The notes beneath the pieces are model-generated. The model saw only the letters and a program-made list of their open reading frames with translations. It did no database searches and was not told the DNA's origin. The position numbers were made by a program, and so were the translations under genes. Positions 4,986-64,000 of a stretch of 64,000 nucleotides of DNA are shown in pieces. Numbering within the stretch: position 1 is the first letter of the stretch; each line of letters starts with the position of its first letter. The stretch is from Burkholderia ubonensis subsp. mesacidophila (GTDB lineage: Bacteria; Pseudomonadota; Gammaproteobacteria; Burkholderiales; Burkholderiaceae), in assembly GCF_002097715.1 (NCBI RefSeq), contig NZ_CP020738.1, forward strand, positions 1,550,001-1,614,000, written 5' to 3'.

Positions 4986-5405
4986 GGTATCGACGACCGC
5001 GATCGTGTGCAGTATTCACGATTGGCATCTTGTCTAAAACCACGTCGAACCTATCCCAATAAAGTCACGCCCTGTTTCGAATTGACATTCTGAAGACATT
5101 ATGAAAATGTTAATTCGGGAGTGTTTTTTTAATATATTCCTTGGCTTGATCGGGGGAAATCGAGACTTCGCTCATCGATTTGATCATCTCTGACAATGCG
5201 CAGTACCTCGCGTCTGCTACGATCGCGTCACGGATAGAGGGGATCAATTGCACGCGGTACGTCTGAAGCGTGCAACCGCGACGTGCATGAGCAAAAATAT
5301 CGTCATCCTAATTCTCATCGCGGTCTAGATTAACGGCGTCCGACCGAGCGGACGTTGAATTCAATTGAAATCTGAAGCAGAGGCGCGACCCGCGTCGGAT
5401 GAATA
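4986..5405. other. Gap upstream of cdiA: AT-rich leader region
   Basis: Apart from the possible small minus-strand frame at 5110-5253 I see no gene here. The stretch around 5070-5150 is clearly AT-rich and contains a TTGACA at 5082-5087, but no convincing -10 element at the right spacing. It presumably carries the promoter and leader of the large exoprotein gene at 5406. Confidence 0.5.
5110..5253 (-). CDS. Possible 47-residue small protein or gene remnant, unknown function
   Basis: A GTG-initiated frame of 48 codons on the minus strand, in the gap upstream of the large cdiA gene. The peptide is amphipathic and ends SISPDQAKEYIKKTLPN. Residue composition looks protein-like (balanced charges, no low-complexity runs). 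The same frame is open 17 codons further upstream to a TAG but without an ATG, so this may be the 3' end of a lost gene. No ribosome-binding site is evident. Codon use is more AT-rich than in neighbouring genes, consistent with acquired DNA. No function can be assigned. Confidence 0.3.
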   Translation of the reverse strand: MQLIPSIRDAIVADARYCALSEMIKSMSEVSISPDQAKEYIKKTLPN

Positions 5406-8400
5406 ATGAACAAGAATCGCTATCGGGTGGTTTTCAATCGCGCGCGTGGCGCGATGATTGTCATTCAGGAAAACAGTAATACTGCGCGTGCGGCCGGAAT
5501 TGCGCGGGGATCGCATGCGTCGCTCGGATCGACAGGATTTCGTGTCGTGTGGCAGCCCATCGCGATGGCCGCTGCATTGCTGTTCGGCGCGCCGCTGCTG
5601 AGTATCGCGCAAATCGTGCCGACGCCGGGCACGAATACGCACCTCATCCAGACGCAAAATGGGCTGCCGCAGGTGAATATCGCTGCGCCTTCGGGGGCTG
5701 GCGTGTCCGTGAATACGTACAACCAGTTCGACGTCCAGAAAAACGGCGCGATTCTGAACAACTCGCCCACGATCGTTCAAACGCAGCAAGCGGGCTACAT
5801 CAACGGCAACCCGAACTTTGGTCCGGGCCAGTCTGCGCGAATCATCGTCAACCAGGTCAACAGCGCGAACCCGTCTCAATTGCGAGGGTATGTCGAGGTC
5901 GCGGGTAGCCGCGCGGAAGTCGTCCTGGCGAATCCGTCCGGCATCGTCGTCGATGGCGGGGGATTCATCAATACAAGCCGCGCCACGTTGACGACGGGCC
6001 AACCGTACTATGGCGCCGATGGGTCGCTCGGAGGGTTCAACGTAACCCGCGGCCTGATTTCCGTGCAAGGGGCGGGCCTCAATGCTGCGAATGTCGATCA
6101 GGTCGACCTGATTTCCCGTGCGGTGCAGGCGAACGCGGCAATATATGCGAAAAACCTGAACGTCGTCGCGGGGGCGAATCAGGTCAATCACGACACGCTG
6201 GCCGCGACGCCGATCGCCGGCGAGGGTGCGGCACCTGCGATTGCGATCGACGTGGCGCAATTGGGCGGTATGTACGCGAATCGCGTCTTTCTCGTAAGCA
6301 ACGAGTTTGGTGTTGGGGTTGCGAACGCAGGAACAATCGCCGCCCAGGCAGGCGATCTGACGCTGCAATCGAATGGCCAACTCGTACTCACGGGCAAGAC
6401 GACGGCGAGCGGTAATTTCACCGCAACCGCGAACAGTATTCAAAATTCCGGCACGACGTATGCACAACAGAACGTCAATGTATCGACGGGCGGCGCGTTG
6501 TCGAACAGTGGCACGCTTGCGGCGCAGCAAAATACAACGATCAACGCGGGCAGTATCAATTCGACGGGAACGCTCAGCGCAGGCGTCAATAACGACGGTT
6601 CTGTCGGAAAGGGCGGCGACCTGAATTTGTCGAGCACGGGCCAGCTGACGGCGACCGGTCGGAACGTCGCAGGCGGTAACGCGTCGATTTCTGGTGGCGC
6701 TGTCAATCTTTCCGGCAGTCAAACGGCTGCGAACGGCAATCTCTCGCTGAAGGCGAATGCGGGCGACCTGAACCTTTCCAATGCGACGACGAGCGCAGAG
6801 GGTGCGATCAATGCCAATGCGGCGGGTGCGTTGATCAATGATCACGGAAGCCTGTCAAGCGGCAGTCATGCAACGCTCGCTGCGGGCAGCATTTCGAACC
6901 AAGGCGGCAAGGTATCGACGCAAGGTCCGCTGACTGTGCAGTCGTCCGGCCAATTCGCCAATCAGGGCGGTACGCTTGTATCGGAAAGTTCGATGCAGGT
7001 GCACGGCGGCGCGCTCGCGAATAACCGAGGGACGATACAAAGCGCAGCCGGAATGATTATTTCCGGAACGTCGTTGGACAATTCGGCGGGGCGAGTCACG
7101 TCATTGAACAGCGACGGCCTGTCGATCACAACGACCGGGCAACTGATCAACGCGAGCGGTACGACCTCAACCGGTGCGCAAGGCGGTGTGATCGGCAGTA
7201 ACGGTGGCGTCAATGTACAAGGCGGCACCATCGTCAATCAAGGCGTAATCACGGCCAATACGGGCCTGCACGTGATCGGACAATCCGTTGACAACTCGGG
7301 CGGCTCGCTGAAGGCAGCACAGTCCGTGACAGTCGATGCGGGCGCGCGTTTGTCGAACGCGAACGGTACGATCGTTGGTCAGTCGGCGACCGTGAACGGC
7401 ACCACGATCGACAACAGCGGCGGCACGGTACAGGCGACGCAGGTTGCGTTGAATGGTACCGATCTTGTCAATCACAGCGGCGTTATTACGCAGACCGGAA
7501 CCGGTCCGATCGCGGTTAATGTCTCCGGTACGCTCGATAATTCGCAAGGCGGCACGCTGCAGACCAACAGCACGGACTTGACGCTCGCATCGGCTACGTT
7601 GCTGAACGACGGCGGCACGATCACACATGGCGGATCAGGCACGCTGATGGTGAAGCCGGGCAACGGCACAGGTGCTTTCAGCAATGTCGGTGGCTCCGTA
7701 GTTACCAATGGGCAGGCCGCGATTCAGGCGGGTTCATGGAACAACGCGCAAGGGACTTTCGCGGCGCGTCACGGCATTGTCGCGAACATCGCGGGCAATC
7801 TGGCGAACTCGCAAGGCTTGATTCGCTCGCAAGCGGGTATGTCGTTGACGAGCGGCGGCACGCTGGACAACCAGAACGGGAAAATTGCAGCGGGCACCGA
7901 TGCTCGTCCGGATACGAGCACGCTGAGTGTACAAGCAGCAACGATTCAGAATTCGGGCGGGCTGATTGCGGATTTGGGTACCGGCGCGACATCGGTACAA
8001 GGCGGTAGTCAACTGCTCAACAGCGCAGGCACGATCACTGGTAACGGTGACGTGACCGCGCAGGCTTCTTCGATCGCCAATACGAACGGCGCGCAACTGA
8101 GCGGCGCGAACGTTCAGGTGCGTAGCGACACGCTCGACAATAGCGGCGGCAAAATCGGTAACGTTGCCGATGGTAATGTCGATATCGGGACGACCGGCGC
8201 GATTACGAACACGAACGGGAAAATCGGTGCGACGCGCGATCTGACGGTATCGGCTAACACGCTGCTTGGTGGCGGCACGTACAGTGCGGCCCATGATGCG
8301 TCGTTGAATTTGCAGGGCGATTTCGCTAGCACGGCGGCCTATCAGTTCAGCGCCGGTCATGATCTTGCCTTCACGTTGCCCGGTACGTTTGCCAACAGCT

Positions 8401-11400
8401 CGGGCCTGCAATCGGTCAACAACCTGTCGATCAACGCAGGCGACATCGTGAACAGCGGCGCAATCGCGGCCGGGAATCTGCTGAAAACGCATTCGAATAC
8501 GCTCACTAATACCGGCGTGATGGTCGGTGGCAGTGCTTCGCTCGTTGCCGACAGCACGCTGTCGAACCTCGGTCCGACTGCGCTGATTGGCGCATCGGAT
8601 AGCAACGGCACGCTCGAACTGCTATCACGGGATATCGAAAACCGGGACGATACGACTGCGACGGACGCGATGGCGCAGACGGCGATTTACGGCTTGGGCA
8701 AGGTCGTGCTGGCGGGTGGCAAGGATGCGAACGGGAATTACACGAAGGCAGCACTGATCCGTAACCAGTCGGCGTTGATCCAGTCCGGCGGCGACATGGA
8801 ATTGCATTCGGATCAGGTGACGAACACGCGTCGCGTGATGACGACGACCGGCTATACCAACAATGTCGATCCGGCGTGGTTGCAGCAGCTTGGCATCAGC
8901 ATGTCCGGTTGCGTGGCCTATTTCATGGACGCATGTAACGGCGCATATCAGGTTCCGGGGATTGATCTTGCAAAGGCTGATCCTTCTGTTATCGAACAAT
9001 TGAAGAAACAGATCGGCGGCGTCTTTATTGATCCGCCCCATGAAGGCCAATGGAATAGCAGCTATCAACGCACGACCTATACAGGTGTCGCGACTGCAAA
9101 TACTGTAAAAGACATCAGTCCTGCTGGCCAAATTGTTTCGGGCGGTAAACTCGGAGCATCGTCGGTTGGCACGCTTCAAAACTATTGGAGCAATATTGCC
9201 GCTGTAAATGGCATTGAAATGCCTGCAAATTACGATGCGGACGGCTGGAAAGCATCGGGACAGCAAGCACCAAGTCTGACAGTCACTTATTCTGGGAATT
9301 ATCACTACAACAACTACGACAACAGTGAACACGACTGGACATATTCATTCTGCGATAAAGGATGTAATGGTCCGGCCGATGTGAAGGAATTCAAGATTCC
9401 CGATTATCAATCGACGCTTGTCACGAATGGCACGTTGTCAGGTACAGGTGTGAGCATCAACAACACGGCAGGCAACGCGTCGATTCCGTCGCTTGGATTG
9501 GTGGCTGGTCAGTCGTTGCCCGTTAATTCCGGCGCGGTGCACGGCACCACGCCGACGATGGTCAATCCGGTGATTGCGAGTGCGACTGCGCTCAACGTCC
9601 TGAATAATCTCACCATTCCGCAAGGCGGGTTGTTCAAGCCGATCACTTCACCGAATGCACCGTACATCATCGAGACGAATCCGGCGTTCACGAATCAAAA
9701 GAATTTCATTTCGAGCGATTATTTCTTCCAGCAGATCGGCGTTGACCTGACGCACATTCCGAAGCGGCTCGGCGACGGCTTTTACGAGCAGCAGTTGGTA
9801 CGCAACGAAATTACGTCGTTGACGGGCAAGGCCGTGTTGGGACCGTACACGGATACGCAGTCGATGTACGAATCGCTGATGGCGGCCGGTGCATCGCTGT
9901 CGAAATCGCTAAACCTTCCGCTTGGCATGAGCCTGTCGCCTGAACAGGTTTCGCAACTGACGAGCAACGTGATCTTGATGGAGACGCGCGTCGTTGACGG
10001 GCAGTCGGTCTTGGTGCCGGTCGTCTATCTGGCAAAAGCCAGTCAGGAAAACTGGAATGGTCCGCTGATCGCCGCGAATGACATTGACCTGAAGAACGCA
10101 CAAACGTTCACGAACAGCGGCACGATGAAGGCGGCGAATACGCTGTCGGTGGACGGCAAGCAGATCGACAACGCATTCGGCGCGCTGCAAAGCGGCGGCT
10201 TGATGAAGCTGACGACGACGGGCGACGTCGATCTGACATCCGCGAACGTGAAGGCCGGTAGCTTGCAGCTGGACGCGGGGAAAGACCTGATTCTCGATAC
10301 CGCAACGAAAACCGTCAAGCAAGTCAACGACACGGGCGCAACGCGCATCACGACGATGCTCGGGCCGCAGGCGAAAATCGATGTCGCAGGCAATGCGGCG
10401 ATCGTGACTGGAGGGAATTTCCAGCAAAACGCGGGAGACCTGAACGTCGGCGGCAATTTGGGGATGCAGGTCGGGGGCAACTGGGATCTCGGTGCGCAGC
10501 AGACTGGCGAGCACAAGGTCGTGCATCGCGCAAATGGTGTGTCGGACGTGGACGTCAATCAGACGATCGGCAGTTCGGTGAAGGTCGGCGGCGTGTCTCA
10601 AATCGGCGTCGGCGGCGACCTGACGGCGAAGGGCGCGCAGATCGATCTTGGTCAGGGTGGCACGGTGGCCGTGAAGGGCGATGTGTCGCTTGGTACAGCG
10701 AGCGCAACGTCCACCATCAACAGCAATAGTTCTAGCAGCAGTCGTGGCCGCAGTTCGGCTGCAACCCTGCATGCCGTGAATGAACGTGTGACCGGCACGA
10801 CGTTGAAAGGCGGCGACACGGTAAATATCGTGTCGGGCAAAGACATTACGCTTTCCGGCAGCACGATCAGTCTCGACAAGGGCAACGCGAATCTGCTTGC
10901 AGCAGGTGACGTGAACGTCGGTGCGGCGACGGAAACGCACGATTACAGTTCGCGCGAAACGCATAGCCGTAGCGGCGTGTTGAGCGGAACGAAGATCGCA
11001 AGTGGGATCGACCAGGCTACGACGATCAGCAGCGGCAGTACGATCTCGGCCGATGGTGTAAATATCGTCAGCGGGAAAGACATCAACGTCACGGGCAGCA
11101 CAATCGTCGGTACCAACGACGTTGCGCTGAATGCGGCGCACGATGTGAATATCACGACTTCGCAGGATAGCGTTCAATCGTCCACTTACTACGACAAGAA
11201 AGAAACTGGTTTGCTGTCGAATGGCGGGCTGTCGGTGTCGGTCGGCTCGCGCTCGATGTCGGACAAACAGCAATCGGCCAGCGTAACGAACAACGGTAGC
11301 GCAGTCGGTTCGCTCAACGGCAACGTGTCGATCAGCGCGGGTAATGACGTGCACGCGACCGGTAGCCTTCTGCATGCGGCTAACGATCTCAATGTTGCGG

Positions 11401-13937
11401 GCAAGTCCGTTACGATTGATTCGGCTTACGACACGACGAGTCAAGCCGAGCAGCAGCAATACCGTCAGGCGGGCTTGACCGTCGGAATTACCAATCCGGT
11501 TGTGGCCGCCGTCCAGACCGGTCAACAGATGGCGAACGCGGCACAGCACGCGAAAGGTGATCCGCGTCTGCTGGCTTTGGCCGCTGCGACGACCGGGCTT
11601 GCGGCAAAGAACGCTTACGATGCTGTGGGCGGCGATCCGGTCAAGGCTGCAACGAGCGTCGGCATCAGTATTTCGTTGGGCGCAAGCAAGAGTGACAACC
11701 AATCGCAAGCGCAGGCCAGAACGGCAGTCGGCAGTACGCTTTCTGCGGGGAGAAACGTAACGATCGCGGCATCGGGGGCAGGTGCGAATAGCAATATCAA
11801 CATAATTGGCAGCACGGTTTCGGCTGGAAGCAATACATTGCTGGCGGCTGATGGCGACGTGAATCTGCAAGCGGCGCAAAACACCAGCAGTCAGCATTCG
11901 ACCAATAGCGGGTCCAGCGCGTCGGTCGGCGTTGCATTTACCGTGGGTTCGCAAAATGGCTTTTCGATCAATGCAGGCGTAGCAGGCAATCGCGGACATG
12001 CCGACGGTGATTCGACCACGTGGACGAACACGCACGTAACGGCGGGCGATACGCTGACAATTCAATCGGGCGGCGACACGAACCTCAAAGGTGCGGTTGT
12101 GTCTGGTCAGCAGGTCGTGGCCGATGTCGGCGGTAACCTGAATGTCGAGAGCCTGCAGAACACCGACCATTACGATTCGAAGCAGCAGAGCGCGGGCGTT
12201 TCGGTGAGCGCCTGTGTGCCGCCGATCTGCTACGGAGGTTCGTCAAGCGTTTCGGCGAATTTCAGCCAGCAGAAGATGAATAGCGATTACGCGGCGGTCG
12301 GCGAACAATCCGGTATCAAGGCAGGCGACGGTGGTTTTCAGGTCAACGTAAAGGGCAACACGGACCTGAAGGGCGGCGTGATCGCGAGCAGCGACAAAGC
12401 TGTACAGGACGGCGTGAACAGCCTGACGACCGCGACGCTCACGCATAGCGATATCGAAAATCGTGCATCGTACGACGCGTCGTCGGTCGGAATTTCGGGT
12501 GGTTACGGTGGCGATATTGGCAAGAATCAGAAAGGCACGGCAGACAACGTCAATCCGGTGCAAGGCACGACGTTGCCGAAGGGTGATGGCGGATTCTCGG
12601 TCGCGCCGCCTGTAGCGCTGAGCGCATCCGGTGACGCGAATTCGACAACGCGAAGCGGTATCAGCGGTGGCGCGATCACGATTACCGATGGCACGAAGCA
12701 GCAACAGTTGACCGGCCAAACAGCAGCCGAAGTAGTCGCGGATATCAATCGTGATACGTCGAACACGGGCGGCGCACTTGTACCGATCTTCGACAAGGAC
12801 AAGATTCAAGCCGGGTTCGACATTACGAGTCAGTTCATTAATCAGGCGGGAACGTTCGTGGCAAATCGCGCTGCGGAAGCCGATGCAGCGAAGGCAGCCG
12901 CGAACAACCCGAATCTAACGCCAGAGCAAAGGGCGGCGGCTCAGCAGCGCGCCGATGAACTGAACGCTAATTGGGGGCCGGGCGGCACGTATCGTCAGGT
13001 GCTGACGGCCTTGTCGGTGGCTGCGGGCGGTAATGTAACGGGGGGCATGGGCCAACTCGCGCAGAATGCGACGGTGGCCTATCTGCAAGAACTCGGCGCA
13101 AACCAGGTGAAGCAGATCGCCGACAACCTCGGCAGCGAGGAAGCGCGTGCTGCGCTTCACGCGATTGTGGGGTGTGCGGGCGCGGCGGCCAGTAGCCAGA
13201 GCTGTGGTGCCGGTGCGATGGGGGCGGCGAGCAGTTCGGTGCTCGGGAGTTTGCTTGCGCCGTCAGCAAATCTGTCGGCATCAGAGCGGGAAGCGCGCGA
13301 CAATCTGGTGACGAGTTTGGTGGCGGGCATAGCGGCGGTATCGGGGCAGGATGTTGCAACGGCGACGGGTGCTGGCAAGATTGAGGTGGAGAACAATCAG
13401 GTCGCACCGATGGCTCCGGTTCCCGGTTGGCTCGCTGGATTCAAGCTACCGGGATACAAGGGCGAGACGGCAGCCAAGGGCGATGGTGTGATCGCTGATC
13501 CGGCGACCGAGTTGGATCCGAGTGCGAAAGCGGGGCCGCTTATTGCGCCGAATCCGGGACCAAAGGTGATTGAGGCGTTGATAACGGCGGCCGTGCCGCA
13601 GTGGATTAAAAATTTACTGAGCGGCGGGATTACGGCTGACGGGAGGCCAGTAATCGACACAAAAATTGCTGATCAACTCGGGGAACGAGGGTGGACTGAA
13701 AGCGATATTCAGGCTGCGATCAAGAATGGTGCAACAGGAACTAGTGTGGACAAGCGGTCGGCGACGAAATCACCAGACGGCGTCGCAAGAAATGATCCTG
13801 CGACGGTGTATGGAACACCCAATGGCTATGTTGTTGTGAATGACAGAACTGGCGAGGTAGTTCAAGTAAGCAACAAGAGGGATCCCGGCTGGATCGCTGA
13901 TGGAAGAATTAGTTGGAAGGACGCAAAGGGGAGGTGA
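5406..13937 (+). CDS. cdiA: CdiA/FhaB-type two-partner-secretion exoprotein with colicin E5-like tRNase C-terminus
   Basis: A 2843-residue TpsA protein. The N-terminus MNKNRYRVVFNRARG is the extended signal peptide region of very large autotransported/TPS proteins. The TPS secretion domain follows (roughly residues 75-320; motifs SGAGVSVNTYNQFDV, NNSPTIVQTQ, NPSGIVVDGGGF). A long run of beta-helical hemagglutinin repeats (N-S-G-G-T rich) occupies about 320-2450. The pre-toxin region ends in a VENN motif at 2661-2664. Residues ~2751-2843 are a nuclease domain closely resembling the colicin E5 cytotoxic domain (motifs ERGWTESDI, NGATGTS, RNDPATVYG, VVVNDRTGEV, RDPGW). Colicin E5 cleaves queuosine-containing tRNAs (Tyr, His, Asn, Asp) in the anticodon, so this protein is predicted to deliver a tRNase on cell contact. 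An immunity gene starts 2 bp after the stop. The E. coli-type VENN delimiter is used rather than the Burkholderia (Q/E)LYN. Confidence 0.95.
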   Translation: MNKNRYRVVFNRARGAMIVIQENSNTARAAGIARGSHASLGSTGFRVVWQPIAMAAALLFGAPLLSIAQIVPTPGTNTHLIQTQNGLPQVNIAAPSGAGVSVNTYNQFDVQKNGAILNNSPTIVQTQQAGYINGNPNFGPGQSARIIVNQVNSANPSQLRGYVEVAGSRAEVVLANPSGIVVDGGGFINTSRATLTTGQPYYGADGSLGGFNVTRGLISVQGAGLNAANVDQVDLISRAVQANAAIYAKNLNVVAGANQVNHDTLAATPIAGEGAAPAIAIDVAQLGGMYANRVFLVSNEFGVGVANAGTIAAQAGDLTLQSNGQLVLTGKTTASGNFTATANSIQNSGTTYAQQNVNVSTGGALSNSGTLAAQQNTTINAGSINSTGTLSAGVNNDGSVGKGGDLNLSSTGQLTATGRNVAGGNASISGGAVNLSGSQTAANGNLSLKANAGDLNLSNATTSAEGAINANAAGALINDHGSLSSGSHATLAAGSISNQGGKVSTQGPLTVQSSGQFANQGGTLVSESSMQVHGGALANNRGTIQSAAGMIISGTSLDNSAGRVTSLNSDGLSITTTGQLINASGTTSTGAQGGVIGSNGGVNVQGGTIVNQGVITANTGLHVIGQSVDNSGGSLKAAQSVTVDAGARLSNANGTIVGQSATVNGTTIDNSGGTVQATQVALNGTDLVNHSGVITQTGTGPIAVNVSGTLDNSQGGTLQTNSTDLTLASATLLNDGGTITHGGSGTLMVKPGNGTGAFSNVGGSVVTNGQAAIQAGSWNNAQGTFAARHGIVANIAGNLANSQGLIRSQAGMSLTSGGTLDNQNGKIAAGTDARPDTSTLSVQAATIQNSGGLIADLGTGATSVQGGSQLLNSAGTITGNGDVTAQASSIANTNGAQLSGANVQVRSDTLDNSGGKIGNVADGNVDIGTTGAITNTNGKIGATRDLTVSANTLLGGGTYSAAHDASLNLQGDFASTAAYQFSAGHDLAFTLPGTFANSSGLQSVNNLSINAGDIVNSGAIAAGNLLKTHSNTLTNTGVMVGGSASLVADSTLSNLGPTALIGASDSNGTLELLSRDIENRDDTTATDAMAQTAIYGLGKVVLAGGKDANGNYTKAALIRNQSALIQSGGDMELHSDQVTNTRRVMTTTGYTNNVDPAWLQQLGISMSGCVAYFMDACNGAYQVPGIDLAKADPSVIEQLKKQIGGVFIDPPHEGQWNSSYQRTTYTGVATANTVKDISPAGQIVSGGKLGASSVGTLQNYWSNIAAVNGIEMPANYDADGWKASGQQAPSLTVTYSGNYHYNNYDNSEHDWTYSFCDKGCNGPADVKEFKIPDYQSTLVTNGTLSGTGVSINNTAGNASIPSLGLVAGQSLPVNSGAVHGTTPTMVNPVIASATALNVLNNLTIPQGGLFKPITSPNAPYIIETNPAFTNQKNFISSDYFFQQIGVDLTHIPKRLGDGFYEQQLVRNEITSLTGKAVLGPYTDTQSMYESLMAAGASLSKSLNLPLGMSLSPEQVSQLTSNVILMETRVVDGQSVLVPVVYLAKASQENWNGPLIAANDIDLKNAQTFTNSGTMKAANTLSVDGKQIDNAFGALQSGGLMKLTTTGDVDLTSANVKAGSLQLDAGKDLILDTATKTVKQVNDTGATRITTMLGPQAKIDVAGNAAIVTGGNFQQNAGDLNVGGNLGMQVGGNWDLGAQQTGEHKVVHRANGVSDVDVNQTIGSSVKVGGVSQIGVGGDLTAKGAQIDLGQGGTVAVKGDVSLGTASATSTINSNSSSSSRGRSSAATLHAVNERVTGTTLKGGDTVNIVSGKDITLSGSTISLDKGNANLLAAGDVNVGAATETHDYSSRETHSRSGVLSGTKIASGIDQATTISSGSTISADGVNIVSGKDINVTGSTIVGTNDVALNAAHDVNITTSQDSVQSSTYYDKKETGLLSNGGLSVSVGSRSMSDKQQSASVTNNGSAVGSLNGNVSISAGNDVHATGSLLHAANDLNVAGKSVTIDSAYDTTSQAEQQQYRQAGLTVGITNPVVAAVQTGQQMANAAQHAKGDPRLLALAAATTGLAAKNAYDAVGGDPVKAATSVGISISLGASKSDNQSQAQARTAVGSTLSAGRNVTIAASGAGANSNINIIGSTVSAGSNTLLAADGDVNLQAAQNTSSQHSTNSGSSASVGVAFTVGSQNGFSINAGVAGNRGHADGDSTTWTNTHVTAGDTLTIQSGGDTNLKGAVVSGQQVVADVGGNLNVESLQNTDHYDSKQQSAGVSVSACVPPICYGGSSSVSANFSQQKMNSDYAAVGEQSGIKAGDGGFQVNVKGNTDLKGGVIASSDKAVQDGVNSLTTATLTHSDIENRASYDASSVGISGGYGGDIGKNQKGTADNVNPVQGTTLPKGDGGFSVAPPVALSASGDANSTTRSGISGGAITITDGTKQQQLTGQTAAEVVADINRDTSNTGGALVPIFDKDKIQAGFDITSQFINQAGTFVANRAAEADAAKAAANNPNLTPEQRAAAQQRADELNANWGPGGTYRQVLTALSVAAGGNVTGGMGQLAQNATVAYLQELGANQVKQIADNLGSEEARAALHAIVGCAGAAASSQSCGAGAMGAASSSVLGSLLAPSANLSASEREARDNLVTSLVAGIAAVSGQDVATATGAGKIEVENNQVAPMAPVPGWLAGFKLPGYKGETAAKGDGVIADPATELDPSAKAGPLIAPNPGPKVIEALITAAVPQWIKNLLSGGITADGRPVIDTKIADQLGERGWTESDIQAAIKNGATGTSVDKRSATKSPDGVARNDPATVYGTPNGYVVVNDRTGEVVQVSNKRDPGWIADGRISWKDAKGR
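13141..13521 (+). repeat. Pre-toxin repeat, copy 1 (inside cdiA)
   Basis: This 381-bp segment, which encodes the region just before and including the VENN motif of CdiA, is repeated almost base-for-base at 14370-14750 (constant offset 1229, only scattered substitutions). Sequence similarity stops abruptly after the GATCCGA at the right end, exactly where the variable toxin region begins. It is therefore a ready-made homology block for exchanging CdiA C-terminal toxin modules. Confidence 0.9.
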
Positions 13938-13938
13938 A

Positions 13939-14286
13939 ATGAGTGACGCGAATGAACGTATTGACCCTTGGAAGTGCTATGCAGATGCAGAGGATTTTTT
14001 TTCCCTTCGCGGCAGCATCGTCATGAAACTCACTACAGAGGCGGCGATTGGTGTTTGCGAACGGGCTGCGGAGAGAGGGCTACTCATTTCTCGTGTTGAA
14101 GGAGGAATATGGCGTCACCCAGGGTTCGAAGCACGTGTTGATTGCATATGGGATGGCGCAGAACCACCGCTAGACACGACGACTGCAAACGAAAACAACA
14201 TGGCTGCAATTGAGTTCATTCGGTCAGAATTGCCTGTGCACGACACCTTCATTATCACCTCGTTGCCAATAACTGGAAGAAGTTGA
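13939..14286 (+). CDS. cdiI: ImmE5-like immunity protein for the CdiA E5-type tRNase
   Basis: A 115-residue protein with its ATG one base after the cdiA TGA; a strong ribosome site (GGGGAGG) overlaps the end of cdiA. From the internal Met at residue 29 it reads MKLTTEAAIGVCERAAERG, then GGIWRHPGF, NENNMAAIE and TFIITS, matching in order the colicin E5 immunity protein, an anticodon-mimicking inhibitor that occupies the tRNase active site. The first ~28 residues are an extension not in ImmE5; an alternative start at 14023 would give a protein of the family's usual length (~87 residues). Genetic linkage to the E5-type toxin strongly supports the assignment. Confidence 0.88.
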   Translation: MSDANERIDPWKCYADAEDFFSLRGSIVMKLTTEAAIGVCERAAERGLLISRVEGGIWRHPGFEARVDCIWDGAEPPLDTTTANENNMAAIEFIRSELPVHDTFIITSLPITGRS

Positions 14287-14368
14287 CTGAAAGTACCGAC
14301 TTGATTGTGCAGCGTGGACAGACGTGCGGCGATTTATAGTCAGTGCGAAGTCGATCGACCGGTATTAA

Positions 14369-15229
14369 GAAGCGCGTGCTGCGCTTCACGCGATTGTGGG
14401 GTGTGCGGGCGCGACGGCCAGTAGCCAGAGCTGTGGTGCCGGTGCGATGGGGGCTGCTAGCAGTTCGGTGCTCGGGAGTCTGCTTGCTCCATCAGCAAAT
14501 CTGTCGGCATCAGAGCGCGAAGCGCGCGACAATCTGGTGACGAGTTTGGTGGCGGGCATAGCGGCGGTATCGGGGCAGGATGTTGCAACGGCGACGGGTG
14601 CTGGCAGGATTGAGGTGGAGAACAATCAGGTCGCACCGATGGCTCCGGTTCCCGGTTGGCTCGCGGGATTCAAGCTACCGGGATATAAGGGCGAGACGGC
14701 CAGCAAGGACAATGGCGTGATCGCTGATCCGGCGACGGAACTTGATCCGACGATCAAGGTAGGCATGCCGGGGTCGGAGCTTGCTGGATCGAACGTGATT
14801 GACCGGATATTTGATGCGCCTACCGTGGACGTGGTTAAGGGGCTGGTTGAATATCTCATTAATTCGATCGGCGGAAAAAACTCCAGTGTTCCACCGTCAA
14901 TCAAGGGAAGCGATGGAAATCTGCCGGCTGGTATTGGGGGAGTGGGCACACCAATTCCGATGCCACCAAGCAGTAACCCGAACGAGACTGCAGAGCAATT
15001 TGCAAAAGATGCATTCAATGGCCAGACACCCGTGAAAGTGGTCAACAACGTTACCGGGGAAGGAAGTTGGGTAGCAATTTTGCCAGATGGAACTGCGGTC
15101 ACATATCGTCCCGCTGGGCAGGCGTCATCCAAGACCGCTGGCGACACAGCGACCGTGGAGGTCAATAACTCGGCAGTTAAAGCAATCAATAGAGGCGAGA
15201 TTGCGAAATTTAAATTCCCTGGAAAATGA
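14369..15229 (+). pseudogene. Orphan CdiA C-terminal module (displaced cdiA-CT with a different, unrecognised toxin)
   Basis: An open frame of 286 sense codons that opens in the middle of the CdiA pre-toxin region (EARAALHAIVGCAGATASSQ) and contains VENN and the PVPGWLAGFKLPGYKGE block. After about residue 128 it diverges into a new C-terminus: a Pro/Ser/Gly linker, then NETAEQFAKDAFNGQTPVK, VTGEGSWVAILPDGTAVTY and a C-terminal KFKFPGK. No signal sequence or start codon is available except an internal ATG at 14396, so it cannot be exported alone and is best read as a stored toxin cassette. The PDGTAVTYRP-type C-terminus recalls tails of other hemagglutinin/Rhs proteins, but I cannot name its activity. 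An AT-rich gene, its presumed immunity gene, follows 7 bp downstream. Confidence 0.85.
14370..14750 (+). repeat. Pre-toxin repeat, copy 2 (start of orphan CdiA-CT)
   Basis: Near-identical copy of 13141-13521. It begins without a start codon directly after the first immunity gene region and is followed by a different toxin sequence, which marks it as a displaced cdiA 3' fragment. Confidence 0.9.
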
Positions 15230-15236
15230 GGTAGCT

Positions 15237-15659
15237 ATGAATGCGTTCCCGGAAATTGATTACCAAAAGCAACTTATCGTATCTGGACTCGACGATTTCT
15301 CTCCTAATGCAGCGCTATCGCAAGTTCTTGGCGGTCAATTTGGATCAAATTCAGAATTATGGCGACAGGCCGTTATAGAATTCCTTTGTATTAATGTTCG
15401 GGCAAATCTGCTGGAATGCACGAATCGAAAGGAGATATCCGGCGATGCTGGGGCAATTTTGTTAAGGGAGTTGTTGAATTTTGGGGATAAAAAAAATAAC
15501 ATTGATTCTGAAATAATATGGAATGTTTTGTATTTTAGTGCAACCCAAAATTTGGAGTGCATGTTAAATAAGTTTCAACTGAATAGCTGGGATTCGTTGA
15601 ATCAAGGGGTTAATTTTAATTTCATAAAAGCTCTCCGGGAAATATATTGTGAAGTTTAG
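15237..15659 (+). CDS. Putative immunity protein for the orphan CdiA-CT module
   Basis: A 140-residue acidic, cytoplasmic-looking protein starting MNAFPEIDYQKQLIVSG, with its ATG 7 bp after the orphan toxin stop and a GAGGTAGCT sequence just upstream. It is strikingly AT-rich (ATT, AAT, TTA and AAA codons are common) compared with the rest of the window, as is usual for recently acquired immunity genes. I do not recognise a family. The function is inferred only from position: small gene immediately downstream of a CdiA-CT cassette. Confidence 0.65.
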   Translation: MNAFPEIDYQKQLIVSGLDDFSPNAALSQVLGGQFGSNSELWRQAVIEFLCINVRANLLECTNRKEISGDAGAILLRELLNFGDKKNNIDSEIIWNVLYFSATQNLECMLNKFQLNSWDSLNQGVNFNFIKALREIYCEV

Positions 15660-15969
15660 ATCTTTGATAAAGAGAAGATTGAGGCGGTGTTTGAGATTGT
15701 TGGTCAGTTCGTGAATCAGATGGGGACGCTTGTCGCGAATCGCGCTGCAGAAGCGGATGCGGCGAAGAAGGCGGCGAATGACCCGAGTCTGAGCCCGGAG
15801 CAGCGGGCGCAGGCGCAAGCGAAGGCGGATGATCTAGCGAAATTGGGTGCTGGGGCAGTTATCGTCAGGCGCTGACGGTTGCCGCCGAGGGGAACGTGAC
15901 GGGAGGTGCGGGCCAGTTTGTGCAGGCGGCGACGGTGGCGTATGTGCAGGAATTCGGTGCGTATAAGGG
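15660..15969 (+). pseudogene. Third CdiA fragment (pre-toxin region, frameshifted)
   Basis: Directly after the second immunity stop the DNA again resembles cdiA, this time the region at about 12787-13115. It encodes IFDKEKIEAVFEIVGQF, VANRAAEADAAKKAAND and SPEQRAQAQAKAD, the counterparts of IFDKDKIQAGFDITSQF and following in CdiA. A short deletion near 15855 shifts the frame; after it, RQALTVAAEGNVTGGAG and QAATVAYVQEFGA follow in another frame. The fragment ends at a junction with a TpsB fragment. It is a dead cassette remnant. Confidence 0.85.
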
Positions 15970-16326
15970 CTGTACTACATCGATGATATGACCATCGGAA
16001 GTCACTACACGGTGCGCGGATTCGACGGCGAAGCGATGCTGGCGGCGGCACGCGGCTTCTACTGGCGCAACGAATTGCAGATGCCGATCGGACAGACTGG
16101 ACAGGCGATTTATGCAGGACTGGATTACGGCCGCGTATGGGGCCCACAGCCGGTCGCGTTGGTCGGCACCCAACTGGCCGGTGCAGTAATCGGCGTCAAG
16201 GGCAGCGTCGCGACGCGTTTCGGTGGGTACGGCTACGACCTGTTTGCTGGTACGCCGGTCTACAAGCCATCTGGATTTCCGACCGCGCGTGTGACGGTCG
16301 GATTTCAGGTTACGGCGCAGTTTTGA
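15970..16326 (+). pseudogene. Truncated TpsB/CdiB (ShlB/FhaC-type) outer-membrane transporter, C-terminal part only
   Basis: From a junction at about 15970 an open frame of 118 sense codons encodes LYYIDDMTIGSHYTVRGFDG, then GFYWRNELQMP, YAGLDYGRVWGP and a final strand ending VTVGFQVTAQF. This is the C-terminal beta-barrel half of a two-partner-secretion transporter, including the VRGF motif of FhaC-type proteins. The N-terminal POTRA domains and first barrel strands are missing, with cdiA-derived sequence fused in their place, so it cannot function. The order cdiA-cdiI-cdiB is the Burkholderia/bcpAIB arrangement. Confidence 0.85.
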
Positions 16327-16338
16327 GGAAATTCGAGG

Positions 16339-16740
16339 ATGCAGAGTTGGGCGCGTGCACGGACCAACGATGCGATGTCATCGATCAGCAGGGAGGTCGA
16401 AGAGAAGGCGCTGCTTCATAGCCGCCGTGCAATTGAGCGAGCGCTGCGTGAACATGTGCATGCGCTGCTGTCGCCTGAGGCAGACCCTGTTCCGTCGTGT
16501 CCGCGCTGCAAAGGGACCGTGATCGACAAAAAGGGATGTACGCACCGAAGCACTGGATGGTTGCCGACGTATCTTTATGCAGGTTGCGGCCAGTATTTCA
16601 ATCGCCCCGGTTTCATGCCGCTTGCTCATCGAGCGGTTGACCAATTCGATTTCAACGGGCAAGACGAGCGCGGACGACTGGTATGCGCCGGTTGCCGATC
16701 AAGCCGCCGGCGCCCGGCACGCCGAGCCCGGCGCGAGCGC
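16339..16740 (+). pseudogene. DUF746-type zinc-ribbon protein, truncated
   Basis: An ATG at 16339 opens a frame encoding RAIERALREHVHALLSPEAD, then CPRC and a second zinc-ribbon half (YAGCGQYFNR), as in the DUF746 proteins common in Burkholderia and often near mobile DNA. The second metal pair is altered (AGC instead of a CxxC), and after about residue 115 the frame simply runs on antisense through the convergent cupin gene. I therefore regard it as a truncated copy; the endpoint given is only where the cupin gene begins. Confidence 0.5.
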
Positions 16741-60642: not shown

Positions 60643-60740
60643 AAAATTCGGCCAGGGATTTTCGAATCGATGGGTTTGATCGTGGGGTTGGTCGTTACCC
60701 CCATTTGATTCGCATTCCAAGTTTAAAACTCGTTGCACTC

Positions 60741-63700
60741 ATGAATAAAAATCAATATCGCCTCGTGTTCAGTCGCGTGCGCGGCATGTTAATCGCAGTC
60801 GAAGAGACTGTCAGCTCGTCGGGGAAAGCGGGCAGGGGCGAAGCCGTGCGCAAGGTGGCGGGTGCCTTGCAAAGCGTGATGCCGCGGGTGGCGCTGCGTC
60901 GCGTGGCGTTTGCCGCGCTGGCGACGGCAGGCGTAGTGCCGATGTGGGCCGGCGCGCAGGTGGTGGGCGCGGGTCCGCATGCGCCGGCTGTCGTTCAGAC
61001 GCAGAGTGGCTTGCCGCAAGTGAACATCAACAAACCCAGCGGGGCTGGTGTTTCGTTGAATACGTATTCCCAGTTCGACGTGCAGAAACCTGGCGTGATC
61101 TTGAACAACTCGCCAGTTATCACGAACACGCAGCAAGCGGGCTATATCAACGGCAATCCGAATTTTGGCCCGAATGATGCGGCACGCATCATTGTCAACC
61201 AGGTCAACAGCAACAACCCGACGCAACTGAGAGGCTACGTCGAGGTGGCGGGCCAACGCGCCGAGGTGATCATTTCGAATCCGTCCGGATTGGTCGTTGA
61301 TGGCGGCGGGTTTATTAATACCTCGCGCGCAATCCTGACGACCGGTACGCCGACCTTGAATGCGGACGGGGCGCTGGCGGGATTCAATACGACACGTGGC
61401 CTCATTACGGTACAAGGCGCGGGCCTGAATGCAACGAATGTCGACCAGGTCGACCTCATTGCCAGAGCCGTACAAACAAATGCCGCGATTTACGCAAACA
61501 ACCTTAACGTGGTCGCGGGGGCGAACCAGGTCAATCACGACACGCTCCAGACAACGCGAATTCAGGGCGAAGGTGCGGCGCCCGCCGTCGCGATCGACGT
61601 GAGCCAGCTCGGCGGGATGTACGCAAATCGCATCTTCCTGGTCGGGACAGAGGGCGGTGTCGGTGTACGGAACGCCGGCACGATCGCGGCGGATGCGATG
61701 GGCATGACGCTGACGACTGGCGGGCGGCTGGTGCAGTCGGGCAAGATCAGCTCGCTTGGCAACGTCGCGGTATCCGCGGCGGGTGGTGTCGAGAGCAGCG
61801 GCACGACCTACGGTCAGCAGTCGGTATCGGTGAGCACGGGCGCCGACGTGGTGAATACCGGGACACTCGCGGCACAGCATGACGTGGGCGTAACGGCGGG
61901 TTCGCTGAACTCGACGGGCACGCTCGGCGCAGGCGTGAACAGCGACGGTATCGTCACGCAAGTTGGCGACCTGCAAGTCACGACGACGGGCACGTTGAGC
62001 GCGACCGGCAAGAACGTTGCAGGCGGCAACGTCACGGCGAAGGGCCACGGCGTGAACCTTGCCGGCGGCACGACGGCAGCGAACGGCAACCTGTCGCTGA
62101 CTGCCACGACCGGTGACGTGAACCTTGCGAATGCGACGACCAGCACTCAAGGTGCATTCACGGCGAATGCGGCGGGCGCGGTCGTCAACGACCATGGCGA
62201 ACTGTCGAGCCAGGGCAGCACCACGGTAACGGCCGGCAGCGTATCGAACCAGGGCGGCAAGGTGTCGTCGCAGGGGCCGCTGTCGGTGACGGCCACCTCC
62301 GGGCAACTCGCCAACCAGTCCGGCTCATTTGTATCGAAAAGCACGCTGGCGCTGCGCGGCGGCGCCATCGCGAACAATCAAGGCACGATCCAGAGCGCCG
62401 GGCGAGCAACAGTCGACGGGGTCACGATCGACAACACGGCGGGCCGCATTACGTCGCTCAATACCGATGGGCTGGCGCTGACGGCGACCGGCCAGCTCAC
62501 GAATGCAGCCGGTACGGCAGCGGACGGCGCGCAAGGCGGCGTGATCGGCGGCAATGGCGATGTGACCGTGCAAGGCGGGAATATAGCCAACCACGCGACG
62601 ATCAAGTCCAACACGAATCTTCATGTTTCCGGTCAGTCGGTCGACAACAGCGGCGGCACGCTGAAGGGCGTCCAGGGCGTGACGGTCGATGCGGGTGCGC
62701 ACCTGACCAACCGTGGCGGCACGATCATCGGCCATACGGCCAAGGTCGACGGCACGACGCTGGACAACAGTGCCGGCACCGTGCAGGCCGATCAGGTCTC
62801 GTTGGGCGCAACCGATGTGGTGAACCACGGCGGCACGATCACGCAAACCGGGGCCGGCGCGATGACGGTCAACGTCTCGGGCACGCTCGACAATTCGAGC
62901 GGCGGCACGCTGCAATCCGACAGCACCGACCTCATGCTCGCCCCGACCACGCTCAAGAACGACGGCGGCACGATTACGCATGCGGGTACTGGCACGCTGA
63001 CGCTTGGCAATGGCGCCGGCTCGGTTTCGAACGTCGGCGGCACGATCGCAGGTAACGGGCGGGTCGTTGCGCAAACCGGTGCGTTGAACAACACATCGGG
63101 TTCGATCAACGGTCAAACCGGCTTGTCGGCCACGGTCGGCGGCGCGCTGAACAACAAGAACGGCAAGCTGTCTTCCGATACGGATCTCGGCTTGACCAGC
63201 GGCACGCTGACGAACGACGGCGGCCGGATCGGCGCGATCACGAATGCGACGATTCACACGGGCTCGATGACGAACCAGAGCGGTTCGATCGTTGCGCCGA
63301 ACCTGTCAGTTACCGCCGATTCGACGCTGGATAACAGCGGGGGCAAGCTCGAAACCAATCAGCTCGTGCTGACCACGCCGAACCTGATGAACCATGGCGG
63401 CACGATCACGCAATATGGATCGTCGGCAATGAGCGTCAATGTCAGCGGCACGCTGGACAACTCTGCGGGCGGTACGATCCAGACGAACAGCCGGGATCTC
63501 ACCCTCGCCCCGGCCCAGTTGAACAATGCCGGCGGGACGATTACGCATGCCGGGACGGGTACGCTGAAGATCGCACCGGCCAATGGCGCGAGCGCGCTGA
63601 ACAACGCATCGGGCACCATCGTCACCAAGGGGCAAGCGGTTGTCGACGCGAGCAGTTGGGACAACTCGAGCGGTATTCTCTCGGCACAGGGCGGGACGAC

Positions 63701-64000
63701 CGGAACGATCGCGGGCGACGTCAACAACACACGGGGGCTGGTGCGTTCGGATGCGTTCCTGTCGCTCACCAGCGGCGGCTCGCTGGCGAACCAAAGCGGT
63801 CACATCCAGGCCGGCCAGTCGACGGTGGGCGATACCAGCACGCTTGCCGTTCAATCCGCGTCGATCAACAACGCTGACGGGGCGATTACGAACCTCGGCA
63901 GGGGCGCGATGACCGTGCAAGGCGGTAGCCAGATCGTCAACAGCCATGCCGGCGATGTGTTCGGCATGGGCGCGATCACCGGTAACGGCGACGTGACGGT
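60741..64000 (+). CDS. Second TpsA (CdiA/FhaB-type) exoprotein, N-terminal 1086 residues (runs off right edge)
   Basis: An open frame from ATG 60741 to the window end. It starts with the extended signal region MNKNQYRLVFSRVRGMLIAV, a hydrophobic core and TPS domain (SGAGVSLNTYSQFDVQKP, NNSPVITNTQQAGYINGNP, NPSGLVVDGGGFINTSRAIL) very similar to that of the cdiA at 5406, then beta-helical hemagglutinin repeats rich in Asn-Ser/Gly-Gly. The signal region differs more from the first copy than the TPS domain does. The toxin end lies outside the window, so its class is unknown. Its promoter candidate is at 60613-60642. Confidence 0.93.
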   Translation, partial: MNKNQYRLVFSRVRGMLIAVEETVSSSGKAGRGEAVRKVAGALQSVMPRVALRRVAFAALATAGVVPMWAGAQVVGAGPHAPAVVQTQSGLPQVNINKPSGAGVSLNTYSQFDVQKPGVILNNSPVITNTQQAGYINGNPNFGPNDAARIIVNQVNSNNPTQLRGYVEVAGQRAEVIISNPSGLVVDGGGFINTSRAILTTGTPTLNADGALAGFNTTRGLITVQGAGLNATNVDQVDLIARAVQTNAAIYANNLNVVAGANQVNHDTLQTTRIQGEGAAPAVAIDVSQLGGMYANRIFLVGTEGGVGVRNAGTIAADAMGMTLTTGGRLVQSGKISSLGNVAVSAAGGVESSGTTYGQQSVSVSTGADVVNTGTLAAQHDVGVTAGSLNSTGTLGAGVNSDGIVTQVGDLQVTTTGTLSATGKNVAGGNVTAKGHGVNLAGGTTAANGNLSLTATTGDVNLANATTSTQGAFTANAAGAVVNDHGELSSQGSTTVTAGSVSNQGGKVSSQGPLSVTATSGQLANQSGSFVSKSTLALRGGAIANNQGTIQSAGRATVDGVTIDNTAGRITSLNTDGLALTATGQLTNAAGTAADGAQGGVIGGNGDVTVQGGNIANHATIKSNTNLHVSGQSVDNSGGTLKGVQGVTVDAGAHLTNRGGTIIGHTAKVDGTTLDNSAGTVQADQVSLGATDVVNHGGTITQTGAGAMTVNVSGTLDNSSGGTLQSDSTDLMLAPTTLKNDGGTITHAGTGTLTLGNGAGSVSNVGGTIAGNGRVVAQTGALNNTSGSINGQTGLSATVGGALNNKNGKLSSDTDLGLTSGTLTNDGGRIGAITNATIHTGSMTNQSGSIVAPNLSVTADSTLDNSGGKLETNQLVLTTPNLMNHGGTITQYGSSAMSVNVSGTLDNSAGGTIQTNSRDLTLAPAQLNNAGGTITHAGTGTLKIAPANGASALNNASGTIVTKGQAVVDASSWDNSSGILSAQGGTTGTIAGDVNNTRGLVRSDAFLSLTSGGSLANQSGHIQAGQSTVGDTSTLAVQSASINNADGAITNLGRGAMTVQGGSQIVNSHAGDVFGMGAITGNGDVT

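What the first reader, a model, noticed from the sequence alone, without database searches (positions are those of the whole stretch)
13141..14750. 381-bp near-identical repeat brackets the toxin/immunity pair: a recombination switch for CdiA-CT
The pre-toxin block 13141-13521 recurs at 14370-14750 with constant offset 1229 and few mismatches, and identity ends sharply where the toxin starts. Recombination between the copies would delete the E5 toxin and its immunity gene and place the orphan toxin in frame at the end of the same CdiA. The frames agree (both read EARAALHAIVGCAG), so the product would be a complete exoprotein with a new warhead and its immunity gene directly behind.
Basis: partly seen in the sequence, partly recalled or inferred. 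Interest (0 to 1): 0.75.

Follow-up and report, generated by a model that had tools for sequence, protein, structure and literature searches.

The report
Spare toxin tail behind a CdiA
A Burkholderia gene for a contact-killing protein is followed by a spare, silent toxin-and-immunity tail that carries a 95% identical copy of the joining region; it looks like a former warhead pushed aside by a newer one, and could in principle be put back by recombination.

Summary
Window 13140-13521 recurs at 14369-14750 (362 of 382 bases identical, offset 1229, same reading frame). The first copy is the pre-toxin end of a 2843-aa CdiA carrying a colicin-E5-type RNase, with ImmE5 behind it. The second starts right after a stop codon and opens an orphan tail: pre-toxin, unrelated toxin, immunity gene.

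Best reading: displacement. The orphan's pre-toxin is local (96% to the resident copy), while its toxin also ends full-length CdiAs elsewhere (77-92% identical, on pre-toxins only 69-76% alike). The resident CdiA probably once carried it.

The proposed deletion is mechanically possible; a Salmonella rhs orphan with 522 bp of 95% identity recombines this way (PMC3967940). But no switched strain was seen, the event removes ImmE5, a related B. ubonensis orphan keeps only part of the repeat, and this locus's cdiB is truncated, so export needs a CdiB from elsewhere.

Orphan modules and this model are in print. Less expected is the host: two papers report no orphan modules with the Burkholderia gene order (PMC3415462, PMC4364669).

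The parts
5406..13937 (+). cdiA (bcpA-like), 2843 aa: ESPR, TPS domain, haemagglutinin repeats, VENN pre-toxin, colicin-E5-type C-terminal domain
   Evidence: one open frame; Pfam ESPR, TPS, Fil_haemagg, Colicin_E5; VENN at residue 2661
13140..13521 (+). repeat copy 1: pre-toxin region with VENN, inside cdiA
   Evidence: 362 of 382 bases identical to copy 2
13650..13904 (+). colicin E5 ribonuclease domain of the resident toxin
   Evidence: PF12106 E 2.7e-30, only match in the genome; phmmer to solved colicin E5, E 1.5e-34
13939..14286 (+). cdiI of the resident toxin (ImmE5 family)
   Evidence: PF11480 E 5.6e-12
14366..14368 (+). TAA stop in the frame of the orphan, directly before repeat copy 2
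   Evidence: read from the sequence
14369..14750 (+). repeat copy 2: 5' part of the orphan cdiA-CT
14369..15229 (+). orphan cdiA-CT, 286 codons open from the TAA; first possible start GTG 14396; no signal or TPS part
   Evidence: PT-VENN only weak, 18.3 bits, below the 20.3 cut-off
14750..15229 (+). orphan toxin part (TOX2); no convincing match in Pfam, NCBIfam, PADLOC or PDB
   Evidence: 79% identical to the end of a full-length CdiA in Paraburkholderia sp. SG-MS1
15237..15659 (+). orphan immunity gene (IMM2), 140 aa
   Evidence: follows TOX2 in 7 of 10 related loci (aligned); no Pfam match
15675..15961 (+). decayed piece of a third pre-toxin (frame broken)
   Evidence: two tblastn pieces, about 67% to residues 1-100 of the 113-residue segment before the repeat
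15970..16326 (+). 3' remnant of cdiB (last ~118 of about 587 residues)
   Evidence: ShlB profile 233-311 only; 89% to the intact CdiB at C2:1623012

Best explanation
[quoted passage not shown] This CdiA once ended in TOX2 followed by IMM2. A newer module, an E5-type RNase plus ImmE5 with its own copy of the pre-toxin, came in by recombination in the pre-toxin and pushed the old tail downstream, leaving it without start, signal or transporter-binding part. The 382-bp repeat is the footprint of that event. It also makes the reverse possible: RecA-type recombination between the copies would delete 1229 bp and reload TOX2, at the price of ImmE5. SHOWN: repeat, frames, intact orphan and immunity frames, mosaic make-up, truncated cdiB. 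INFERRED: order of events, expression of IMM2, any switching, export by a CdiB from another locus.
For: Mosaic: the orphan's pre-toxin is 96% identical to the resident one and 92-94% to B. ubonensis E5 proteins P0002 and P0123, but 69-76% to five TOX2-ending CdiAs (three named Burkholderia, two unnamed), whose toxin part is 77-92% identical. TOX2 ends full-length CdiAs in 5 of 120 listed proteins (7 more share only its first 50-85 residues) and in L021 and L023, with IMM2 and a cdiB behind (L023's cdiB lies in two frames). E5/ImmE5 likewise ends CdiAs in L092 and L028. At DNA level copies 1 and 2 (94.8%) are closer to each other than to any of 15 other pre-toxins compared (best 83.5%). Counted base by base, 7 differences are nonsynonymous and 13 synonymous (dN 0.025, dS 0.144); duplication followed by neglect of one copy, modelled with a constraint of 0.18 on the other, predicts about 12 nonsynonymous (P about 0.02), so it looks as if two working alleles met. 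A B. ubonensis orphan (P0122) carries TOX2 at 91% and keeps a piece of pre-toxin from further upstream.
Against: Gene conversion between the copies could also make them alike, and the silent-change bias rests on 20 differences and an assumed constraint. The order of arrival (E5 second) is inferred from position. No ancestral strain with TOX2 on this CdiA backbone was seen. The junction before copy 2 is unexplained. P0122 and this orphan differ at the 3' end of the repeat. P0123, a B. ubonensis E5 piece in a 315-aa frame, may be an orphan the other way round, or a broken main gene; its context could not be read.
Confidence: 0.65

Rival explanations
1. A working switch: the repeat is kept so that a minority of cells delete 1229 bp (or do so after duplicating the locus) and deploy TOX2.
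For: Frames are intact; 88, 57, 45 and 40-base perfect runs suit RecA-type recombination. Salmonella rhs does this with 522 bp of 95% identity (PMC3967940); Y. pestis Microtus shows a 3557-bp deletion that loaded a CDI orphan (PMC3150448). The genome keeps a second ImmE5-family gene (60% identical over 106 residues) with no second E5, which might soften loss of the first.
Against: No switched allele seen; simple deletion leaves cells open to E5 siblings (argued in PMC4927057); in the B. ubonensis orphan P0122 only 61 of the 127 repeat residues align; of 16 loci surveyed (this one included) 12 have no downstream repeat and only 2 a near-identical one.
Confidence: 0.17
2. A plain relic: the orphan toxin is dead weight in a decaying locus and only IMM2 is kept, as protection against neighbours armed with TOX2.
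For: cdiB is reduced to its last part and a third pre-toxin is broken; IMM2 is an intact frame with an ATG at 15237; TOX2 ends full-length CdiAs of other Burkholderia such as P0080 and P0113.
Against: The orphan toxin frame is intact over 286 codons and its toxin part aligns end to end with the loaded forms.
Confidence: 0.15
3. An assembly error that doubled the pre-toxin.
For: Repeats can be mis-assembled.
Against: The copies differ at 20 of 382 sites and are followed by different toxins with their own immunity genes; the genome is in 4 contigs; a B. ubonensis protein shows a 91% identical orphan toxin as a separate short frame (P0122).
Confidence: 0.02

Closest known systems
Orphan cdiA-CT/cdiI modules (Poole et al. 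2011, PMC3150448; Ruhe et al. 2016, PMC4927057)
   Same: Toxin tail without start or export part, pre-toxin homologous to the upstream cdiA, own immunity gene; both the displacement and the reserve model are in print
   Different: Those were described downstream of cdiBAI loci; here the order is cdiA-cdiI-orphan-(cdiB remnant), the Burkholderia order
Salmonella rhs main/orphan pair (Koskiniemi et al. 2014, PMC3967940)
   Same: Near-identical repeat (522 bp, 95% there; 382 bp, 94.8% here) in main and orphan genes before their toxins; recombination was shown there
   Different: Rhs rather than CDI; no recombination shown here
Burkholderia-type bcpAIOB CDI systems (Anderson et al. 2012, PMC3415462)
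   Same: Gene order A, I, then B; a CdiB of the family common in the genus
   Different: VENN instead of Nx(E/Q)LYN; orphan module present although that paper searched and found none; cdiB truncated
B. dolosa bcp-4 locus (Elery et al. 2023, PMC10449530)
   Same: Truncated bcpA and bcpB pieces and an extra immunity-family ORF behind bcpAI
   Different: An intact bcpB-4 lies about 8 kb further on there; here only the remnant follows, and the next intact CdiB gene known belongs to another CDI locus

Membership tests
Orphan cdiA-CT/cdiI module | 3' cdiA fragment lacking start, signal and TPS parts, downstream of a full cdiA | tested here: met
Orphan cdiA-CT/cdiI module | homology to the upstream cdiA in the VENN pre-toxin region | tested here: met
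   94.8% over 382 bp including VENN
Orphan cdiA-CT/cdiI module | own immunity gene behind it | tested here: met
   by position and linkage only: IMM2 follows TOX2 in 7 of 10 related loci; the 3 without it have TOX2 at 56% identity or less
Orphan cdiA-CT/cdiI module | toxin inhibits growth, immunity protein blocks it | not testable with these tools
   no experiment possible
Recombination switch (rhs type) | in-frame near-identical repeats before main and orphan toxins | tested here: met
Recombination switch (rhs type) | recombinant junction found in a population or sister strain | tested here: inconclusive
   none among 120 listed CdiAs of 471 hits; one genome per species and 90% clustering limit this
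Burkholderia-type CDI locus | gene order cdiA, cdiI, (O), cdiB | tested here: met
   cdiB remnant lies downstream; intact cdiB downstream in relatives such as L021 and L058
Burkholderia-type CDI locus | Nx(E/Q)LYN motif before the toxin | tested here: not met
   VENN at residue 2661, no (E/Q)LYN; a VENN-type BcpA is described as atypical in PMC9291907
Burkholderia-type CDI locus | functional cdiB in the locus | tested here: not met
   only ShlB profile positions 233-311 remain
Colicin E5 RNase (resident toxin) | E5 ribonuclease domain with ImmE5 gene adjacent | tested here: met
   PF12106 and PF11480 above cut-off; match to solved colicin E5; activity not tested

The most novel reading that the evidence does not exclude
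VENN-class Burkholderia CDI loci carry reloadable orphan tails and change toxins by displacement and recall through the pre-toxin repeat, contrary to the published view that Burkholderia-type systems lack orphan modules; here the locus also lives off transporters of other CDI loci, and a spare ImmE5 elsewhere in the genome (C2:810689) cushions loss of immunity when the tail is swapped.
Probability: 0.2. Interest if true: 0.65.

Novelty: new member of a known kind. Interest (0 to 1): 0.42.

Why it matters
Anderson et al. (PMC3415462, Discussion) searched for orphan modules in Burkholderia-type loci, found none and concluded that diversity there must arise differently; PMC4364669 says that the cdiAIB order goes with a lack of orphans (passages read). 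Both typify such loci by (E/Q)LYN, so this VENN-class locus may lie outside what they searched; it is still a clean orphan in the Burkholderia gene order. Short pre-toxin frames on contigs over 20 kb (39 of 43, this locus included) suggest it is not alone. The repeat makes the question testable by sequencing: one PCR or long-read survey would show whether tails are swapped.

Tried and rejected

Considered and set aside: a site-specific recombination site. The left edge of the second copy differs between genomes (in G002 a 153-bp copy at 97.4% starts 38 bp further upstream; P0122 keeps other pieces). Recombinase genes were not searched for. TOX2 is not a common toxin in the species set: 2 of 65 genus genomes, this one and a 29% match; 11 of 398 in the family, those two included.

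Corrected on the way: some query pieces were translated one base out of frame: TOX1 (all three), TOX2, the CdiA middle and the segment 12403-12800. One search repeats all pieces with checked frames; values for these pieces come alone. In one search the CdiB frame picked for L042 was on the wrong strand, so its missing match there means nothing (one search shows 95% between that CdiB and the one at C2:1623012).
Full report
WHAT IS THERE. Window 5406-13937 is one open frame of 2843 residues with an ESPR signal region, TPS domain, haemagglutinin repeats and a colicin E5 ribonuclease domain at its end: a CdiA. An ImmE5-family gene follows at 13939. The end of this CdiA before the toxin, 13140-13521, is repeated at 14369-14750: 362 of 382 bases, offset 1229, no gaps, same frame. 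The first 332 bases carry 10 mismatches and the last 50 carry 10, so the left edge is sharp and the right edge fades; a crossover near the right end, with the toxin bringing its own last stretch, would explain that (inference). VENN (residue 2661) lies inside. Copy 2 follows a TAA (14366-14368) and opens 286 codons: pre-toxin plus a different toxin part, TOX2. IMM2 starts after a gap of 7 bases. Then come a broken piece of a third pre-toxin (15675-15961) and only the last ~118 residues of a CdiB.

CHANCE. In 5406-16500 the only offset with exact matches of 24 bases or more is 1229; the longest exact run is 88 bases, against at most 16 in 50 Markov shuffles.

TOXINS. The resident toxin matches solved colicin E5 (E 1.5e-34). 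TOX2 and IMM2 match no family searched and no solved fold convincingly. They travel together: IMM2 follows TOX2 in 7 of 10 other loci with the TOX2 domain; the 3 without it have TOX2 at 56% identity or less.

WHERE ELSE. TOX2 is rare by species: 2 of 65 genomes of the genus, this one and a 29% match; 11 of 398 of the family, those two included. In the protein collection it ends full-length CdiAs in 5 of 120 listed proteins (P0080, P0098, P0106, P0110, P0113; best local identity 84-92%); 7 further ones share only its first 50-85 residues at 38-52%. In named genomes it ends CdiAs of Paraburkholderia sp. SG-MS1 (L021, 79%) and Burkholderia sp. Ac-20365 (L023, 67%), with IMM2 and a cdiB behind; L023's cdiB is split over two frames. 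So each toxin is a main warhead somewhere.

ANCESTRY. Over the orphan's columns its pre-toxin is 96% identical to the resident copy and 92-94% to P0002 and P0123 of B. ubonensis, but 69-76% to the five TOX2-ending CdiAs (76-77% to L021 and L023); its toxin is 77-92% identical to those of the five. The orphan is thus a mosaic: local pre-toxin, widely found toxin. At DNA level the two copies are closer to each other (94.8%) than to any of 15 other pre-toxins compared (best 83.5%). Counted base by base, 13 differences are silent and 7 not; duplication followed by neglect of one copy, with an assumed constraint of 0.18 on the other, predicts about 12 not silent (P about 0.02). This fits two working alleles brought together, though gene conversion is not excluded. 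A B. ubonensis short protein, P0122 (4 members, 3 contigs), carries TOX2 at 91%, a pre-toxin piece from further upstream, and 61 of the 127 repeat residues. The simplest account is that TOX2 was once this CdiA's tail and was pushed down by E5.

WOULD A CROSSOVER WORK? The frames and the 88-base perfect run say it could happen. PMC3967940 (abstract and passages read) gives evidence of it for rhs with 522 bp of 95% identity; PMC3150448 (passages and section 7 read) reports a natural 3557-bp CDI deletion in Y. pestis Microtus and puts forward the model; PMC4927057 (passages read) sets displacement and reserve models side by side and notes that the deletion removes the old immunity gene; PMC6336857 (passages read) describes displaced tails in Acinetobacter; PMC7662968 (passages read) reviews orphans as replaceable tips. 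Here the deletion removes ImmE5. The genome has one other ImmE5-family gene, at C2:810689, 60% identical over 106 residues, and no second E5; whether it protects is unknown. No CdiA of this backbone ending in TOX2 is among the 120 listed, but the collection is clustered at 90% identity and the genome set has one genome per species. In 16 loci compared, 4 (this one included) have a downstream pre-toxin repeat within the flank held (3.9-11.5 kb) and 2 a near-identical one: this, and G002 with 153 bp at 97.4%.

EXPORT. The genome has 8 matches to the CdiB family, 7 elsewhere in frames of 578-660 residues and 1 the remnant here. The remnant is 89% identical to CdiBs at C3:557920 and C2:1623012, and the TPS domains of three other CdiAs compared are 64-71% identical to this one. 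PMC10449530 (abstract and passages read) shows that BcpB proteins of B. dolosa, and similarly B. multivorans, secrete non-cognate BcpAs, so export from elsewhere is plausible, not shown.

NOVELTY. Orphan modules, displacement and reloading are in print. For Burkholderia-type loci print says the opposite: PMC3415462 searched for such modules and found no evidence (passages read); PMC4364669 says the cdiAIB order goes with a lack of orphans (passages read). Both typify these loci by (E/Q)LYN, so a VENN-class locus may have lain outside that search. PMC9291907 calls VENN in a BcpA atypical (passages read). PMC10449530 mentions truncated bcp genes behind bcpAI-4 of B. dolosa (passages read). I saw no report of an orphan toxin-immunity pair in a Burkholderia CDI locus in the lists, going by titles and the starts of abstracts; these lists were capped (15 of 1,003 papers, 12 of 19, 10 of 11), and most subscription journals are not held. 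Of 108 short relatives listed, 43 lie on contigs over 20 kb (counted by me, this locus included) and 39 of these match 80 or more residues of the pre-toxin; some may be broken main genes rather than orphans. The host is a Burkholderia: G030, listed as same genus, has a contig of the same length (123310) as L026, B. singularis. The closest named CdiA is from B. ubonensis (P0002; 92-95% along the segments before the pre-toxin); the species was not settled.

VERDICT. Real, well preserved, and best read as a displaced former warhead that could be recalled. A known kind of element in a kind of locus where it was reported missing.

Noticed in passing
window 60705-64000 and beyond (C2:1610705 on): A second CDI locus begins in the window: a 3585-aa CdiA frame with an intact CdiB at C2:1623012, about 47 kb from the first; its CdiB is 89% identical to the remnant at 15970.
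   Followed up: partly
G000:C2:810689-810925 (L109): An ImmE5-family gene, 60% identical to the one at 13939, with no E5 toxin in the genome but the one in the window; the next large frame looks like argininosuccinate synthase (by recall from its sequence, no search).
   Followed up: partly
L058 (G002), 11560-13131 on the reversed stretch: A short near-identical repeat (153 bp, 97.4%) of the same pre-toxin behind another toxin and a small ORF in the immunity position; the frame after it was not identified.
   Followed up: partly
window 15237-15659: IMM2 is 37.6% GC between flanks of about 70% GC, a sign of foreign origin.
   Followed up: no
L093 (G087), 5369-6259 on the reversed stretch: A decayed CDI locus in which a cdiB piece runs directly into a pre-toxin piece, the reverse order of the pre-toxin/cdiB relic joint at 15961-15970 here.
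   Followed up: no
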